35,645 nucleotides of DNA from a virus. The stretch lies in IMG/VR virus record IMGVR_UViG_3300029319_000192, positions 1-35,645 of that record; one strand, written 5' to 3'. The notes under the pieces were generated by a model. The model did no database searches and was not told the origin of the DNA. It saw only the letters and a program-made list of their open reading frames with translations. The translations under genes were made by a program, and so were the position numbers. Positions within the stretch are counted from its first letter, which is position 1, and every line of letters starts with the position of its first letter. Of the stretch, positions 10,979-26,267 are shown in pieces.

Positions 10979-11197
10979 TTAGTCAGACTTGACCAGCTTG
11001 TAGCCCTTGGCCTTAGCAGCTTTGCGAAGATCAGCAACGGTCATGCCGCCCTTTGCCATCATATCGGGCTTCATCATTTCGCGCTTCATTTGGGAACCCA
11101 TCGCCATACCGCCCCCGCGCATCTTTTTAGGAGCACCGCCCCCACGCATCTTCTTGGGAGCACCACCTCGCATCATCTTACGCGGCTTCATCGCCAT
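10979..11197 (-). CDS. Small Met/Lys/Gly-rich basic repeat protein
   Basis: 72 residues from ATG 11197, with GGAGA upstream; the first 20 bases overlap the upstream gene. The N-terminal half has APKKMRGGG-type repeats (about residues 10-32). The tail MTVADLRKAAKAKGYKLVK resembles the short helix-extended-helix of Rho-N/SAP-like modules. Very basic and without hydrophobic segments, so nucleic-acid contact is plausible. I recall similar proteins in marine phage genomes. Possibly a minor virion DNA-associated protein; this is inference. Confidence 0.65.
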   Translation of the reverse strand: MAMKPRKMMRGGAPKKMRGGGAPKKMRGGGMAMGSQMKREMMKPDMMAKGGMTVADLRKAAKAKGYKLVKSD

Positions 11198-17034: not shown

Positions 17035-17481
17035 CTAGTAATGCAGAACGTCTTCAGGGTCCATGATCCGGGCAAGTATTTCGTCATCGTTCAAGATGCG
17101 AACCTCACCCCCGTCAATGGCAAAGCGGCTACCGGCGTACCGGGCAAACATCACCCAGTCTTTCTCCTGGCACCAGGGCCCAGAGGGAAACTTCTCTGAA
17201 TCCTTGTAAGCCAGGGGGCCGACCTTGAGCACATAGCCGACTTGCGTGGATACCTTGTTTTTTTCCACCACATCGTCAGGTAGGTAAAGACCGCTTTCGG
17301 TCTTGCCTTTACCTTGGTAGGGGAGGATCAAGATTCGCCAACCCGTTGGGCTGGGCATACGATCTAGGAGGGATTTTCCGATAGCTTCGGGGTTCAAAAC
17401 CCGCTTCTCGGGCTCAACATAAGCCTCTTCGAGGCTCGCCACTTCTTCCGCCGCCTCGACGGCAGCCGCTGGTTCAGTCAT
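17035..17481 (-). CDS. GroES-like co-chaperonin
   Basis: 148 residues from ATG 17481, overlapping the preceding gene by eight bases. After a 45-residue acidic tail comes a Cpn10 domain: GWRILILPYQGKGKTESGLY (47-66), a mobile-loop-like GKTESGLYLPDDVVEKNK with the LYL tripeptide at 65-67 where GroES has IVL, VGYVLKVGPLAY, GDWV-like KDWVMFARYAGSRF and NDDEILARI at the end. Phage co-chaperonins such as T4 gp31 bind host GroEL so that the phage capsid protein can fold. It lies directly before scaffold and capsid genes, which supports this use. The long N-terminal tail is unusual for Cpn10. Confidence 0.88.
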   Translation of the reverse strand: MTEPAAAVEAAEEVASLEEAYVEPEKRVLNPEAIGKSLLDRMPSPTGWRILILPYQGKGKTESGLYLPDDVVEKNKVSTQVGYVLKVGPLAYKDSEKFPSGPWCQEKDWVMFARYAGSRFAIDGGEVRILNDDEILARIMDPEDVLHY

Positions 17482-20828: not shown

Positions 20829-23273
20829 TCACTGTCGGTTCTGCAATTTGAGGATTTCCCTGTCCATCGCAGACTGAATCCGTGCCTGGGTTTGCCGCTC
20901 CTGAGCCGCCAAGCGCTCTTGGAACTGCTGAGCCCGCATCTGCTGATTTTGAGCATCAAGCTCCAGCTTAGCACGATCAAGCTCGGCATCCGATTGCTGA
21001 GCCTGTGCATCCAATTGAAGCTCCTGCTGCTTGAGCTGCACCAGCGGATCAGGCCCTTGCTGGCCTTCCCCAGAGATTTGCGCGGAAAGCTGCTTAACCT
21101 GCTGCATACCCTCGGCCATAAATTGCGCTTCCATCTGCGCAACCTGAAGCTCCATTTGCTCAGGAGGCATCTGCTGCATTTGAGCCACCTGCTGCGCCGC
21201 GCGTTCCTGAGCAGCAATCTTCACGTGCTGCATCACGTGCTTCTGAAGCGCAATCGCCACGTTCGGTAGCTGAGCCACCATGCCAGAAGACCCAAAAACC
21301 AAGTGCGCCATAATATGTGCCTGATGGTTCTGGCCCTCAAAGGCTTGCAACTGAATATTGTCCATGGCGTCGATGTTTTCTTGCGCGGGGTCCGTGGGCC
21401 GTGGTTCGTCCTCCGGCACCGCCTTCATCAAGCGATCAACGTCCGTGACTCCCAGAGCCTCATACATATCCCGAAACACTTCAGGCATGTTGTGCATGTC
21501 AGGAGCCTGGGCCGCGAGCTGCAACTTGGTCTGCGCGAGCAGAATGCGCTGGGACTGGCTAAAGGTGTTGGGATTGCTGACCGGGATCACATCTACCCGA
21601 TCATCAAAATCCTCAGCCATCACGGAGCCATCAGCACCGGCCACGGAATAGGGGTATTGCTGAGGCAGAGACTCGCTCATGACCCGCGCCAGAATCTTGA
21701 ACTCCTGCCGCATGGCATAGTGCAAGCGCTTATGCACCGCACTCATCACCCGGGTGCCCTGCTCAATCATGGCCATGGTGGTCCCAACAGCCGCCTGCTG
21801 GTTCCCATCACCGACCTTCAGGTCCGTAATCGTGGCAAACCTTTGACCGGCCTGCACCACAAAGCCCAAAAGGTTGAACAAAGTCTGGTCAGGGCCCTTG
21901 AAGGGCAACGGCATAAGGCTATCGCGGATGGCCCCTCCGGGCGCGTCCACATCACGGAACTCACCGGGCTGGAGCGGCTCATCATCGTCCCTGACCCGCA
22001 GCCCACGGGCTTTGAAACCCGCGGGAAGGTTAGAAAGGGTTCCTGCATCAATAAGTTGGCGAAGAGCTGCGGTCGCCGTGCGGGACAAACCACCAATGGT
22101 ATGGATCAAGCCCATACCGTAAAACCCAAAGCCCTGAAGGAATTTGTAATGCACGAAATAAGCGATCTTGCGCTTCAGCTCGTCGTCTTCGCGGTAATTC
22201 CGTCGTATGGACAAAACCTGACCGTTATCCAAAGACAACGTGACAATATAGGGAACCTTGATACCCGTAGGCTCCCCGTCATCATCTATGTCTTCGTAGC
22301 CGTCAAGGTCGAGGTCAACATGGCACTCAAGAATCGTGCAGTCGTAATCAATGTTGCTCGGCTCGGTGCCGTCAATCTTGTCAACGATTTCGTCAATGTC
22401 AGACAGGGCGCTCTGCCCAGGGATCACCTCAATGTCCCGATAGAATCCAGAAACTTGCCGCTTCCGCAAATCATTCATCGACATACGCAGAACTTGCGTA
22501 ATGTTTGGGCAAGTCTCTAAATCAGAGGTCTCATAGGGGACAATAAGGTGCTCAGCCGGAATAAATTTGGATACAGCCCGACCCAGCGCCTCATCGTAGT
22601 ACACCTTCTTAAAGGTCGATCCCGCCAAAGGCAGGTAAAACAGCATCTGATCCATGTCAGGAGTGTAGTCCTCCATGACATTGGTCAAATAATAATTCAT
22701 GAACTGTCCCACGCGCCGGGACTGCGCCACCTTTTGGGGCGTCTCATCACCCATCACCACGGTCCGTACAGGGCCCCCAGGAGGCAAAAGCTCATTGAAA
22801 GCTTGCGCCTGGAACTGAGTGGCGGCTTCCGCCAATAACGGGTGAGTTACGCCACTCGCGCCACGAAAGGGCTCGGTTCGTTCTTCGTAGGTAAAGCCCA
22901 GCAGCTCCAAGCCGTCAGCATAGGAATCTTCCCACTCCTGCCGCGACGCCTTGTTCGAGTCATACTCCGCCATAAGCTCCGAAGAAATCCGGCCAAGCTC
23001 CCGATCAGGAATCTCCTCGGCCAAATTGGCATAAAAATCTTCGGCCTCACCACGACGGTCCGAAGGCTCAAAATCAATCTCCACACCACCATCTTCCGTG
23101 GGCGAAATCTCAACCGAACCGACGCCATCAGCCGCCATCAAAGCCACTACACTTTCTTGCGAGCCAGGAAGCTCAATCTCTAGCTCGTCAGAAAGGTCTT
23201 GCTCATTAAGCTGCGACGGCACATTCCGGTCCATCAGACCGCCCATGCCTCTCGGAAACTCGGATTCAGCCAT
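20829..23273 (-). CDS. Portal protein (P22-like)
   Basis: 814 residues from ATG 23273 with AGAGGA upstream. An acidic N-terminal region leads into the portal core (about 90-620): EWEDSYADGLELLGF, EPFRGASGVTHPLLAEA, YYLTNVMEDYTPDMDQMLFYLPLAGSTFKKVYYDE, KFLQGFGFYGMGLIHTIGGL, TAALRQLIDAGTLSNLPAGF and MAMIEQGTRVMS. These match the P22-type portal family as I know it. The last 170 residues are Gln/Ala/Met-rich helix, resembling the long barrel of P22 portal. It forms the dodecameric DNA gate, docking terminase and the adaptors encoded downstream. Confidence 0.92.
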   Translation of the reverse strand: MAESEFPRGMGGLMDRNVPSQLNEQDLSDELEIELPGSQESVVALMAADGVGSVEISPTEDGGVEIDFEPSDRRGEAEDFYANLAEEIPDRELGRISSELMAEYDSNKASRQEWEDSYADGLELLGFTYEERTEPFRGASGVTHPLLAEAATQFQAQAFNELLPPGGPVRTVVMGDETPQKVAQSRRVGQFMNYYLTNVMEDYTPDMDQMLFYLPLAGSTFKKVYYDEALGRAVSKFIPAEHLIVPYETSDLETCPNITQVLRMSMNDLRKRQVSGFYRDIEVIPGQSALSDIDEIVDKIDGTEPSNIDYDCTILECHVDLDLDGYEDIDDDGEPTGIKVPYIVTLSLDNGQVLSIRRNYREDDELKRKIAYFVHYKFLQGFGFYGMGLIHTIGGLSRTATAALRQLIDAGTLSNLPAGFKARGLRVRDDDEPLQPGEFRDVDAPGGAIRDSLMPLPFKGPDQTLFNLLGFVVQAGQRFATITDLKVGDGNQQAAVGTTMAMIEQGTRVMSAVHKRLHYAMRQEFKILARVMSESLPQQYPYSVAGADGSVMAEDFDDRVDVIPVSNPNTFSQSQRILLAQTKLQLAAQAPDMHNMPEVFRDMYEALGVTDVDRLMKAVPEDEPRPTDPAQENIDAMDNIQLQAFEGQNHQAHIMAHLVFGSSGMVAQLPNVAIALQKHVMQHVKIAAQERAAQQVAQMQQMPPEQMELQVAQMEAQFMAEGMQQVKQLSAQISGEGQQGPDPLVQLKQQELQLDAQAQQSDAELDRAKLELDAQNQQMRAQQFQERLAAQERQTQARIQSAMDREILKLQNRQ
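21389..21405 (+). repeat. Copy 1 of dispersed 17-mer GGKCCGTGRKCCGTGRY-like
   Basis: GGTCCGTGGGCCGTGGT, inside the portal coding region, is one of four similar 17-base direct repeats in the window, all in this orientation (others at 23289, 31727 and 34735). Role unknown. Confidence 0.55.
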
Positions 23274-23288: not shown

Positions 23289-23305
23289 GGGCCGTGAGCC
23301 GTGGG
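23289..23305 (+). repeat. Copy 2 of dispersed 17-mer
   Basis: GGGCCGTGAGCCGTGGG in the short gap between the ART-like gene and the portal start. It immediately precedes (on the minus strand) the portal ribosome-binding site. The gap also has a CTATG/CATAG hairpin. Confidence 0.6.
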
Positions 23306-23334
23306 CTATGGTTCAAGCATAGTCCGCTATTATC

Positions 23335-24798
23335 CTATCTCATTTGGTCCATGGTGCGCTGCACTTCTTGTCCTTCGGGGAGAGCGTCAATTCCACCCGT
23401 GCCCTGGTCCGCGGACCGAGGCTCTTGGGCGGCCATGGCATCTTCGAGAGTCATCTGATCCGCAACCACGGCACCGGCCAGAGGCAAAGCAATGCCGTAG
23501 CGGCGGGCAATCTCAATAATCTCAGGGTTGAAGACCACAAAATTAGACGTACCCTGCTCTTTCCCGCGAGAATAAGCGTCGCTGTAGCGGATACCCTTAA
23601 TGCCAGCCTCTTCTGCACGGCGCGTGATTTCTTTTTGAGCGCCCTCGCCTCTTAGCTCAAGGCCAAAGCCGTAGTAGGCGCGCCTGCCCGTGCTGTCAAA
23701 ATTTACAGGGTATCGGACATTGCTCCGGTTTTCCGCAAGCATCTGGGACAACTTATTTCTTGCCGCAGTTACTTTCTTGACCAAAGAACCGTAATTCTTG
23801 CTTCCCTGATCGGAAGCTTTTGCTAATTTTTCTTCGAGGGCTTTTGTTTTTTCGACGGCTTTCTTGTATCGCTGGAAACCCTTGTAGTCTAAAAGACCAG
23901 CCTCTCCAAGCTTCTTCTGTACGTACTCAGATTGATCTATTAGCCGCTTATCCCAATCCATTAGCTCTTCAGGAGCAGCATCAATCTCGACTTCATACAT
24001 AAAGCCCTTCTTGGGCCCCACGGAGCGGAAATCGTTGGTGTTCATGTCGTACTGGAGAAAGCTTCCGTCGCGAAGCTCATAGGTCATCGTTCGGTCGCGA
24101 AGATGGTGCTCCTTCCCAACGATGTCCCCCATAAACTCTTCCTCGAAAGCATCCTTATCAGTGGTTTCGGGATCCCAGTAGGCGTCGATGTAGTCCTGAG
24201 CAGCGTTGTTTTCTGGATCAGGGGGCTGCCGGCGAGCAAGAAGTTCGCGATAACTCTTTGCCGTATCCTCTGCTTCCGCGAAGTAATGCCCGGAACCGTA
24301 CACCTGGGCCCCTTCGCCGGACCCTAAAAACTCATCGCTGTACTTATCATGAGCAGTCGGGCCTCCTTGATAAGCTTTGATCTTTGGAGGAGGAACGCTT
24401 TCGGCTGCTTTTGCGGCTTTAGCCCCGCGACCAGCCCGTGCTACCGCACCAAATAAGGGAATCCCGCCAAGGGACTGAAGGGTGGCGTCAAGGTACTGCC
24501 CCTCGCGAATGTTCTTCGCAAGGCTGGGGCCAGGGGGCCCCTGGAGCATTTCAGAAACGGTGACGTCTTCCGCAGGCATCTGGGGGTACTGGCCAAGCAT
24601 GTCGGCATAACCACCCGCGCCGGTCATCGCACCAAGGAAATTCAGAGCTTGAGCTTCTGTAGGCCCCGCATCCGCCGCTGCCGCCGGCACAGGGCCTGCT
24701 TGCGTCATGACATAGTTGCCAGTCTCACGGGCCAAAAGAGCGCGCTGGACATCATTGGCAGCAGGAAGGGCGCCGATCCCGTCTGATCTTTGTGCCAT
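23335..24798 (-). CDS. ADP-ribosyltransferase-like protein (ART-PolyVal type)
   Basis: 487 residues from ATG 24798, between terminase and portal. Residues 138-190 (KIKAYQGGP, then GSGEGAQVYGSGHYFAEAED, then TAKSYRELLA) and 265-285 (GFMYEVEIDAAPEELMDWDK) match the ADP-ribosyltransferase domain known from phage polyvalent proteins, ending with GIKGIRYSDAYSR and TSNFVVFNPEIIEI (400-430). ART enzymes transfer ADP-ribose from NAD to a target. The usual His of the first strand (AYHGS) is Gln144 here, so activity is uncertain. Residues 300-355 form a charged helical insert. N- and C-termini share GIxALP...VQR. Possibly a virion protein delivered into the host; this is inference. Confidence 0.78.
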   Translation of the reverse strand: MAQRSDGIGALPAANDVQRALLARETGNYVMTQAGPVPAAAADAGPTEAQALNFLGAMTGAGGYADMLGQYPQMPAEDVTVSEMLQGPPGPSLAKNIREGQYLDATLQSLGGIPLFGAVARAGRGAKAAKAAESVPPPKIKAYQGGPTAHDKYSDEFLGSGEGAQVYGSGHYFAEAEDTAKSYRELLARRQPPDPENNAAQDYIDAYWDPETTDKDAFEEEFMGDIVGKEHHLRDRTMTYELRDGSFLQYDMNTNDFRSVGPKKGFMYEVEIDAAPEELMDWDKRLIDQSEYVQKKLGEAGLLDYKGFQRYKKAVEKTKALEEKLAKASDQGSKNYGSLVKKVTAARNKLSQMLAENRSNVRYPVNFDSTGRRAYYGFGLELRGEGAQKEITRRAEEAGIKGIRYSDAYSRGKEQGTSNFVVFNPEIIEIARRYGIALPLAGAVVADQMTLEDAMAAQEPRSADQGTGGIDALPEGQEVQRTMDQMR

Positions 24799-24815: not shown

Positions 24816-26267
24816 TCAGTAATAGACTGGAATCCTAACAGAGCTATTCTCGTCCTCCCAGTCATCCGTAGGTAGCTGCACAAAGTTGCCCTGCCGGTAA
24901 CGCATAAGCGCCTGGGTCATGCTATCAACCAAATCATCATGCTCGCCGTTCGGAAACGCCGCCACCTCCTCAATCAACTCATCCGCAAAGGTGGTGTCGG
25001 GGGCCCAAACCATCCCAGCTTCAAGAAGGGGCGAAATCGCATGGACCCGGCTCACCTTGTCATTCCCACGGCTCGGCGTGAAATTAACCACAGGAATGCC
25101 CACCTGACGAAGCTCATGGGTCAAAGGCATACCAGAAGCTTTCGCTTCTACAATTACCGTATCGGGCTCCCAATACTTGTACTCCTCAAGAGCAATCGCC
25201 TTCAATTCAGGGAAATCCCACCGGCCCTTCTTACTATCCAACAGGATAAGGTTCGGGGGGCCCCCATCATGCGGATAGAACACACCCCAGGTGGTAATGG
25301 CCGAATAGTCTGAAGTCTCCCGCCGACTAAACGCCGTATCATAAGACTGGATCACATACTGCAACTGTGGAATGGACTCCTTCTCCCACCGGTTCCACCA
25401 CTCCCGCTTGATAATGGCACTCTCTTCACCAGTAGGGTTTTGCTGATACTGCGCGTTCCACTTGCTGGGAGGTATTGATGCGCGGACCGCGGTCAGGTCT
25501 TCAATGCTCCAGAACTCAGGCCAGCACGGCGTCCCATCATCAAAAATGGCAGGAAGCTCCACCACCTCCCACTGATCCGCTAAGGGGTCTTTAGCCTGCG
25601 CCCTCAAAAGCTGGCCGGTTAAGTCCTTCTCCGACCACCGGGTCTGCACCAGAACAATCGCCCCACCGGGCTGAAGACGCTGCCGGGGGCCCCCGGTGTA
25701 CCAGTCATAGGCAAAATCAAAACCGTTTGCAGACATGGCCGTCTGCTCAGAGTGCGGGTCGTCAATAATACAAAGATCAGCACCACGCCCGGCGAGGTTT
25801 GAGCCAACGCCCACGGCGTAGTACATGCCCCCAGCAGCCGTGTCCCAGCGACCAGAAGCCTTGCTGTCCGCCGAGAGCTTCACCTGCGGGAAGACCTCCT
25901 TGTACTCGTCCGCGTCCAGAAGGTTCTTCGTCTTCCGACCAAAGTTAACCGCAAGCTCCGTCGTGTGCGTCGCTTGGATGATCTTCATCTTCGAGTTGCG
26001 GCCCATCATCCAGGCCGGGAACAGGTAACTGGCGAACTCGGACTTCGTATGGCGGGGCGCCATGTTGATGATCAGACGTTTCAGCTCGCCCCGCGCTACA
26101 CGCTCAAGCTTCTCCGCAATGATGTGATGGTGCCGCCCAGCAATGAACTCGGGCCACATAGCTTTTACAAAATCCAAAAAATTTTCTTGGCAGGCTTCGT
26201 TTCTTTCCAACTGAGCAAGGCGCAGTTGCAGCTTCAGAACGGTCTCGTCGCTTGCGTCTATCCGCAT
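24816..26267 (-). CDS. terL: Terminase large subunit
   Basis: 483 residues from ATG 26267, chosen because GGAGG lies five bases upstream; a longer frame to 26411 has no ribosome-binding site. ATPase domain: Walker A-like MAPRHTKSEF (69-78), Walker B DLCIIDD (164-170), coupling motif around QTRWSE (208-213). Nuclease domain: Asp310 (SYDTAFS), Glu374 (VIVEAKASG) and Asp444/445 (NGEHDDLVDS). It drives DNA into the prohead and cuts it. The small subunit lies 4.2 kb upstream beyond small cassettes rather than adjacent. The palindrome CCAGGGGCCCCTGG overlaps the ribosome-binding region. Confidence 0.95.
   Translation of the reverse strand: MRIDASDETVLKLQLRLAQLERNEACQENFLDFVKAMWPEFIAGRHHHIIAEKLERVARGELKRLIINMAPRHTKSEFASYLFPAWMMGRNSKMKIIQATHTTELAVNFGRKTKNLLDADEYKEVFPQVKLSADSKASGRWDTAAGGMYYAVGVGSNLAGRGADLCIIDDPHSEQTAMSANGFDFAYDWYTGGPRQRLQPGGAIVLVQTRWSEKDLTGQLLRAQAKDPLADQWEVVELPAIFDDGTPCWPEFWSIEDLTAVRASIPPSKWNAQYQQNPTGEESAIIKREWWNRWEKESIPQLQYVIQSYDTAFSRRETSDYSAITTWGVFYPHDGGPPNLILLDSKKGRWDFPELKAIALEEYKYWEPDTVIVEAKASGMPLTHELRQVGIPVVNFTPSRGNDKVSRVHAISPLLEAGMVWAPDTTFADELIEEVAAFPNGEHDDLVDSMTQALMRYRQGNFVQLPTDDWEDENSSVRIPVYY

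What the first reader, a model, noticed from the sequence alone, without database searches (positions are those of the whole stretch)
23335..24798. ADP-ribosyltransferase-like protein between terminase and portal, with a His-to-Gln change
The ART-PolyVal domain is clear, but the first-strand motif reads AYQGG instead of the usual AYHGS. If that His contacts NAD, this copy may be inactive or use another residue. Its place among virion genes suggests it could be packaged and injected, like T4 Alt.
Basis: partly seen in the sequence, partly recalled or inferred. Interest (0 to 1): 0.62.

Follow-up and report, generated by a model that had tools for sequence, protein, structure and literature searches.

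The report
Swappable phage head cargo: ADP-ribosyltransferase-like protein
Between its DNA-packaging motor gene and its portal gene this marine-type phage carries a swappable gene for a protein folded like an ADP-ribosylating enzyme, in which one usual active-site residue is changed; it is probably a payload made with the phage head, but neither its activity nor its presence in the virus particle is shown.

Summary
The 487-aa ORF at 23335-24798 (-) lies 17 bp after the terminase and 61 bp before the portal gene and reads AYQGG at residues 142-146. Pfam's ART-PolyVal model does not find it, but relatives and an AlphaFold2 model do: all 50 best solved matches are ADP-ribosyltransferase folds, led by an ejection protein inside cyanophage A4 particles. 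Gln144 sits where PARP has its His; Tyr172 is kept; the PARP Glu position is Asn419, as in 200 of 201 relatives. Gln is rare (1 of 143 copies sampled without regard to this position, besides 3 Thr and 1 Ser) but recurs on several branches with the rest of the site intact, so it is not a private defect; whether it works is untested. The larger finding lies outside the motif: the terminase-portal gap is an exchange slot. In 59 related contigs it is empty in 11 and holds very different genes in most others; DNA homology stops near residue 113 and resumes about 30 bp before the portal gene. Best reading: an exchangeable, head-delivered effector with an altered ART site. Packaging of ARTs coded near terminase and portal was already proposed in print.

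The parts
23335..24798 (-). ART-fold slot gene, 487 aa
   Evidence: homologs; fold
24460..24798 (-). conserved N-terminal leader, residues 1-113, shared with L002 and L003 whose following domains differ; predicted mostly disordered
   Evidence: blastn homology ends here; pLDDT under 50 over much of 1-120
23458..24387 (-). ART-fold domain, residues 138-447
24367..24369 (-). motif I residue Q144 (usually His), strand 1
24313..24315 (-). E162 of the family signature G-x-G-E-G-A-Q (E in 190 of 201 rows)
24283..24288 (-). motif II H171-Y172, strand 2 (Tyr in 201 of 201 rows; His at 171 in some lineages, Leu in most rows of the neutral sample)
23719..23886 (-). helical insert, residues 305-360, between the two halves of the ART fold
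23542..23544 (-). motif III residue N419 at the PARP Glu position (Asn in 200 of 201 rows)
23304..24458 (-). exchanged payload cassette: region where DNA homology to L002 and L003 is lost between conserved flanks (only short patches remain with L002)
24816..26267 (-). terminase large subunit, upstream border of the slot
20829..23273 (-). portal protein, downstream border of the slot

Best explanation
It is an exchangeable effector ('cargo') gene of a podovirus related to Pelagibacter phages HTVC023P and HTVC027P. It is made with the head proteins from the terminase-portal gene cluster. Its disordered, conserved N-terminal leader most likely brings it into or onto the assembling head, and it leaves with the DNA at infection. 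Its C-terminal domain is an ADP-ribosyltransferase fold of the PARP/diphtheria-toxin type that most likely still binds NAD and modifies a host protein early in infection, with Gln144, Tyr172 and Asn419 in the places of the His-Tyr-Glu triad. Shown here: ORF, position, fold prediction, residue positions, exchange of the payload between conserved flanks. Inferred: packaging, ejection, NAD chemistry, host target.
For: ART fold: AlphaFold2 model with 84 sequences; 30 matches at E<=0.001 among predicted viral proteins, several named ART-PolyVal-like; all 50 rows of VIA-align 2 are ARTs, best Z 10.0 to 9k3a_B. That chain is the A-4L 'tail protein' A4L_27 of a pre-ejectosome (identity checked). The residue offsets at both ends of the PARP1 and tankyrase matches put Q144 on the catalytic His and N419 on the catalytic Glu (residue numbers of those sites recalled). 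Site otherwise kept: E162, Y172, Y183, D283, D407, R411, N419 all present. Head context; neighbours of related ARTs are portal and terminase proteins (phrog_156 portal in 15, phrog_1216 portal in 6, phrog_2 terminase in 6 of 75 neighbours scanned, taken from 106). Slot exchange: 11 of 59 contigs empty (18-58 bp), the other 48 hold 226-3369 bp; sharp DNA breakpoints. dN below dS against L002 in the leader (0.07/0.62) and in the ART halves (0.48/1.85 and 0.28/1.47; dS near saturation, so weak).
Against: No virion proteomics and no activity data. Foldseek against PDB gave nothing at E<=0.001; the ART matches come from the second-look aligner. The N-terminal leader has no known signal and low model confidence. 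Replacing this His lowers activity in PARP1 and diphtheria toxin, and PARP9, which has Gln here, is inactive alone (passages of PMC7955679). Gln is rare in neutral samples (1 of 143). The window protein has one recognisable domain, not the several of true polyvalent proteins.
Confidence: 0.5

Rival explanations
1. Pseudo-enzyme: the domain has lost transferase activity with the His and now only binds a ligand (NAD, ADP-ribose or a partner protein), for example as a decoy or a head-assembly part.
For: Loss of the motif I His in PARP1 and diphtheria toxin cuts activity; PARP9 and PARP13, without the His, are inactive alone (passages of PMC7955679). The PARP Glu position is Asn. In proteins such as L026 a Gln copy sits in tandem with a His copy, which would allow the Gln copy to be a non-catalytic partner.
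Against: All other site residues are kept in Gln rows, and the Gln rows fall on several branches (10 changes on the best tree, 2 forced by well supported branches). A dead site would be expected to drift; at motif I only His or Gln was seen in the 165 viral rows not chosen for motif I (77 His and 1 Gln's set, 72 His and 15 Gln's set). But Thr (3) and Ser (1) do occur among 65 copies from bacterial genomes.
Confidence: 0.3
2. Active ART that is not packaged: it is made late and acts inside the producing cell, or protects the packaging machinery, and merely shares the gene cluster.
For: Only gene position links it to the head; PMC9503650 itself names countering immunity against portal or terminase as an alternative.
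Against: Nearest solved fold is part of an ejectosome; the slot also carries different payloads behind the same leader, which is easier to explain by delivery than by one intracellular task.
Confidence: 0.15
3. Structural or morphogenesis protein (accessory head protein) with a borrowed ART fold and no NAD role.
For: Gene position; 11 of 59 contigs have nothing there, so it is accessory.
Against: Conservation is concentrated in ART signature residues; the slot is dispensable and its contents are unrelated between close phages.
Confidence: 0.05

Closest known systems
ART-PolyVal / N4-type ARTs of phage polyvalent proteins (PF18760; Iyer et al. 2017, PMC5512222; 2022, PMC9503650)
   Same: ART fold, Y-H-G-[ST] type motif I and G-x-G-x-Y-F motif II, place among late virion genes, proposed packaging and injection.
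   Different: Gln for the motif I His; Asn at the PARP Glu position (the paper gives H, Y, D); below Pfam's detection; one recognisable domain rather than many.
Cyanophage A-4L ejection protein A4L_27 (PDB 9k3a chain B)
   Same: Best structural match (Z 10.0 over 123 residues, its residues 1420-1603); an ART fold inside a pre-ejectosome.
   Different: C-terminal part of a 1717-aa protein; keeps the His (YHGT); no significant sequence match.
Sulfitobacter phage phiGT1 gp5 (QLB38217.1)
   Same: ART homolog of similar size, 35% identity over 160 residues, in the head gene cluster of a podovirus.
   Different: His kept; lies two genes after the portal, not before it.
T4 Alt
   Same: Phage ART; Alt is packaged and injected (PMC5512222 section 9).
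   Different: R-S-E clade, different active site; no sequence link tested or seen here.
PARP9 (BAL1)
   Same: Gln at the motif I position (Q-Y-T, table in PMC7955679).
   Different: Motif reads QQV rather than QGG; human protein, needs a partner for activity.

Membership tests
ART superfamily (fold) | split beta-sheet ART core with site residues on strands 1, 2 and 5 | tested here: met
   model; 50 of 50 rows are ARTs
Pfam ART-PolyVal PF18760 | reaches gathering score 31.2 bits | tested here: not met
   no match at E<=0.1; sister L002 28.5 bits
H-Y-[EDQ] clade / polyvalent-protein ARTs | His in strand 1 | tested here: not met
   Q144
H-Y-[EDQ] clade / polyvalent-protein ARTs | Tyr in strand 2 | tested here: met
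   Y172
H-Y-[EDQ] clade / polyvalent-protein ARTs | Glu, Asp or Gln in strand 5 | tested here: inconclusive
   N419 at the PARP Glu position by range offsets; the paper's Asp could not be placed; D424 of most relatives is N in the window
Polyvalent proteins | two or more different effector domains in one polypeptide | tested here: not met
   one recognisable domain in 487 aa; L002 has a longer C-terminus with a HExxH-like motif (motif reading only)
T4 Alt-type packaged ARTs | R-S-E site | tested here: not met
   Q-Y-N positions
T4 Alt-type packaged ARTs | present in the virion and injected | not testable with these tools
   no virion data for this phage; phiGT1 Table S3 not readable here

The most novel reading that the evidence does not exclude
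Gln at motif I, with Asn at the Glu position, is a working alternative NAD site (Q-Y-N) that arose several times in head-borne phage ARTs, in the window together with Gly146 and a new His171 beside the catalytic Tyr, and it changes the chemistry or acceptor; and the terminase-portal gap of this phage lineage is a general payload bay in which a constant leader delivers interchangeable enzymes.
Probability: 0.25. Interest if true: 0.68.

Novelty: new variant of a known kind. Interest (0 to 1): 0.42.

Why it matters
If the Gln variants are active, the His of the H-Y-E ADP-ribosyltransferases is less essential than mutagenesis of PARP1 and diphtheria toxin suggests, and nature supplies matched Gln and His pairs, even in one polypeptide, to test why. 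The terminase-portal slot gives a simple place to look for delivered phage effectors: related marine phages keep both borders and swap what lies between, so the leader can be tested as a head-targeting signal and the contents mined as host-directed enzymes.

Tried and rejected
His relocation from motif I to residue 171: suggested, where every Gln row also had His171; but much of that set had been gathered with a pattern that contains the His. A search by motif I alone gave Gln with Leu, Met, Ile or Ala at 171 in 18 of 21 full-length QGS copies, so there is no general coupling; it holds only for the QGG kind (8 of 8 full-length copies; 20 of 20 readable matches of 36) and for the window. The independent-pairs test had too few pairs.

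'Only His or Gln are allowed at motif I': true of 165 viral rows not selected for it but broken by the bacterial-genome sample: 61 His, 3 Thr, 1 Ser of 65 (read by eye; the scripts' own tallies misparse several rows, for example FQSAYHGS counted as Q).

Pfam, NCBIfam and solved-structure sequence searches with the window protein or profile A5: no ART match. PDB Foldseek: nothing at E<=0.001; tankyrase at rank 49. The prototype ART of Roseovarius Plymouth podovirus 1 was read to place the strand-5 Asp; only motif I and a Phe-bearing motif II aligned, so the Asp stays unplaced.

A second structure job was not used, and no atomic coordinates were available, so no distances in the NAD pocket were measured. 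Papers: no hit for a Gln variant, one paper only for ART-PolyVal, none for cyanophage A4 ejectosome, none in the listing for a terminase-portal cargo slot; this is absence in these searches only.

Rows dropped before counts: seven loci with terminase and portal hits were left out (L001, the window itself, and L031, L046, L073, L082, L164, L165, distant); some near-copies and short ORFs of the slot list were left out before the scans, 75 of 106 neighbour proteins were kept, mainly the longer ones, 201 distinct full-length copies out of 260 domain pieces were aligned, 176 representatives were used.

Full report
What was checked. The ORF at 23335-24798 on the minus strand is exactly as stated: 487 codons, ATG start, 17 bp downstream of the terminase stop and 61 bp upstream of the portal start. 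Residues 142-146 are AYQGG. The window is a whole IMG/VR record of 35,645 bases with no second copy of the gene, 55% G+C. Terminase, portal, capsid, tail and fibre genes are recognised in it; it may be a partial genome.

Is it an ART? Not by standard profiles: Pfam and NCBIfam find nothing above noise; PHROGs finds a weak C-terminal match to phrog_873 (E 3.4e-9). But the nearest protein, on contig L002 in the same terminase-portal slot, is 53% identical and matches ART-PolyVal at E 2.9e-6, just below the curated cut-off, as does phiGT1 gp5. An AlphaFold2 model from 84 sequences has mean pLDDT 76, with most of the domain above 85 and much of residues 1-120 below 50. Predicted viral structures named ART-PolyVal-like match it at probability 1.00. 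PDB Foldseek alone gave nothing at E<=0.001; the VIA-align 2 second look gave 50 of 50 rows of ARTs: 9k3a_B (Z 10.0, rmsd 3.3, 123 residues), diphtheria toxin and a homolog, tankyrases, PARP1 and PARP2, ParT and MbcT. Chain 9k3a_B is A4L_27 of Anabaena phage A-4L, 1717 residues, and its residues around 1424 read YHGT then GSGTYFS. So the closest solved fold is inside a phage pre-ejectosome.

The site. In one search model residue 139 pairs with tankyrase-2 1026 and PARP1 857, and residue 435 with 1154 and 1004. Counting from those ends without gaps puts Q144 on H1031 and H862, and N419 on E1138 and E988 (these catalytic residue numbers are recalled). Strand assignments agree: 140-146, 171-174, 418-422. 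In an alignment of 201 distinct full-length copies Tyr172 is invariant, Asn419 is 200 of 201, Glu162 is 190 of 201. The window keeps all of these.

How odd is Gln144? Two samples were drawn without regard to motif I. In the viral set, 77 of 78 full copies have His and 1 has Gln. In the bacterial-genome set, 61 of 65 have His, 3 Thr and 1 Ser (read by eye). So Gln is rare: 1 of 143. A set picked for His at 171 has 15 Gln and 72 His of 87. Targeted scans found many more Gln copies: 21 full-length QGS and 8 QGG. On a quick tree of 176 representatives, with column 144 left out, the label needs 10 changes; well supported branches alone force 2. The window pairs with L002, a His protein, at support 89, not with the other QGG proteins. 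Gln rows keep the rest of the site. In L026 and several kin a Gln copy and a His copy stand in tandem in one protein. This pattern argues that Gln is a tolerated, recurring state; it does not show activity. Published mutagenesis of the His in PARP1 and diphtheria toxin lowers activity, and PARP9 (Q-Y-T) is inactive alone (passages of PMC7955679).

The slot. With the terminase as query, 80 relatives were fetched. Of 59 loci holding both terminase and portal (seven others, the window's own L001 and six distant loci, were set aside), 11 have 18-58 bp between them and 48 have 226-3369 bp. Contents differ widely: of 50 slot proteins scanned, 16 match DUF6973, 2 ART-PolyVal, 1 GNAT at E<=0.01. Cultured relatives also differ: HTVC023P one ORF, HTVC027P and 023Pt_psg01 two, DSL-LC04 a PcfJ-like protein. 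Four records closest at the slot share the leader to different extents: window and L002 92%, L003 66% over about 115 residues, L087 41%. Blastn shows unbroken homology from the terminase to about residue 113 in L002 and L003, loss across the payload apart from short patches in L002, and resumption about 30 bp before the portal; in L087 it breaks at the slot gene's start codon. This is cassette exchange. L003's payload has a GNAT and a different ART (weak scores); L087's looks ART-like by motif only.

Function. For ARTs of the wider family, immediate neighbours are often portal or terminase proteins, and two papers propose that such ARTs are packaged and injected, one naming terminase and portal neighbourhoods (PMC5512222 section 9 and passages; PMC9503650 sections 13 and 27 and passages). 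So the packaging idea is not new; it fits here. The direct test may exist: phiGT1 virion mass spectrometry is reported (PMC10386132, abstract, passages, sections 19 and 40 read), but the table is in a supplement I could not open.

Verdict. A real ART-fold slot gene, new variant of a known kind: it fails the formal tests for ART-PolyVal (score) and for the H-Y-[EDQ] clade (no His), yet folds like them and most likely works like them. My own estimates: ART fold, high; head-delivered, about 0.7; enzymatically active, about 0.55.

Noticed in passing
slot proteins of L002-L161; window residues 7-11 of the ORF at 23335-24798: A short motif G-[IL]-[GAM]-x-[LFIY] (GIGAL, GIASL, GLGSL, GIMSF) recurs in unrelated slot proteins: 29 of 60, shuffles 2.7; 6 of 17 homology clusters, shuffle mean 0.87, maximum 4 in 200 shuffles. 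In the window it opens the leader, and a degenerate copy (GIDALPEGQEVQR) closes the protein. Chosen after seeing the data; a candidate packaging tag.
   Followed up: partly
slot proteins of L089-L161: A second motif, an aromatic residue or Met, then two residues and G-G-x-V (FEDGGAV, MADGGVV), in 34 of 60 slot proteins against 15.9 in shuffles; 11 of 17 clusters against 4.2. Post hoc.
   Followed up: partly
L026, L183, L205, L342, L344: Tandem ART domains in one polypeptide, a Gln (QGG) copy followed by a His (HGS) copy.
   Followed up: partly
L322, L326, L341, L345: Proteins that begin with the ART motif I and GTGEG signature and then run into a different sequence, as if strand 2 onward had been replaced.
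   Followed up: no
L407, L412, L414, L416: ARTs in bacterial genomes with Thr or Ser at the motif I position and the rest of the signature kept.
   Followed up: no
window 17035-17481 (-): GroES-like co-chaperonin (phrog_3188, E 5.4e-16) among the head genes.
   Followed up: no
window 10979-11197 (-): Small 72-aa protein with repeated MRGGAPKK-like units.
   Followed up: no
L353 2645-5122 (-): Phage DSL-LC04 carries a PcfJ-like protein in the same terminase-portal slot.
   Followed up: partly
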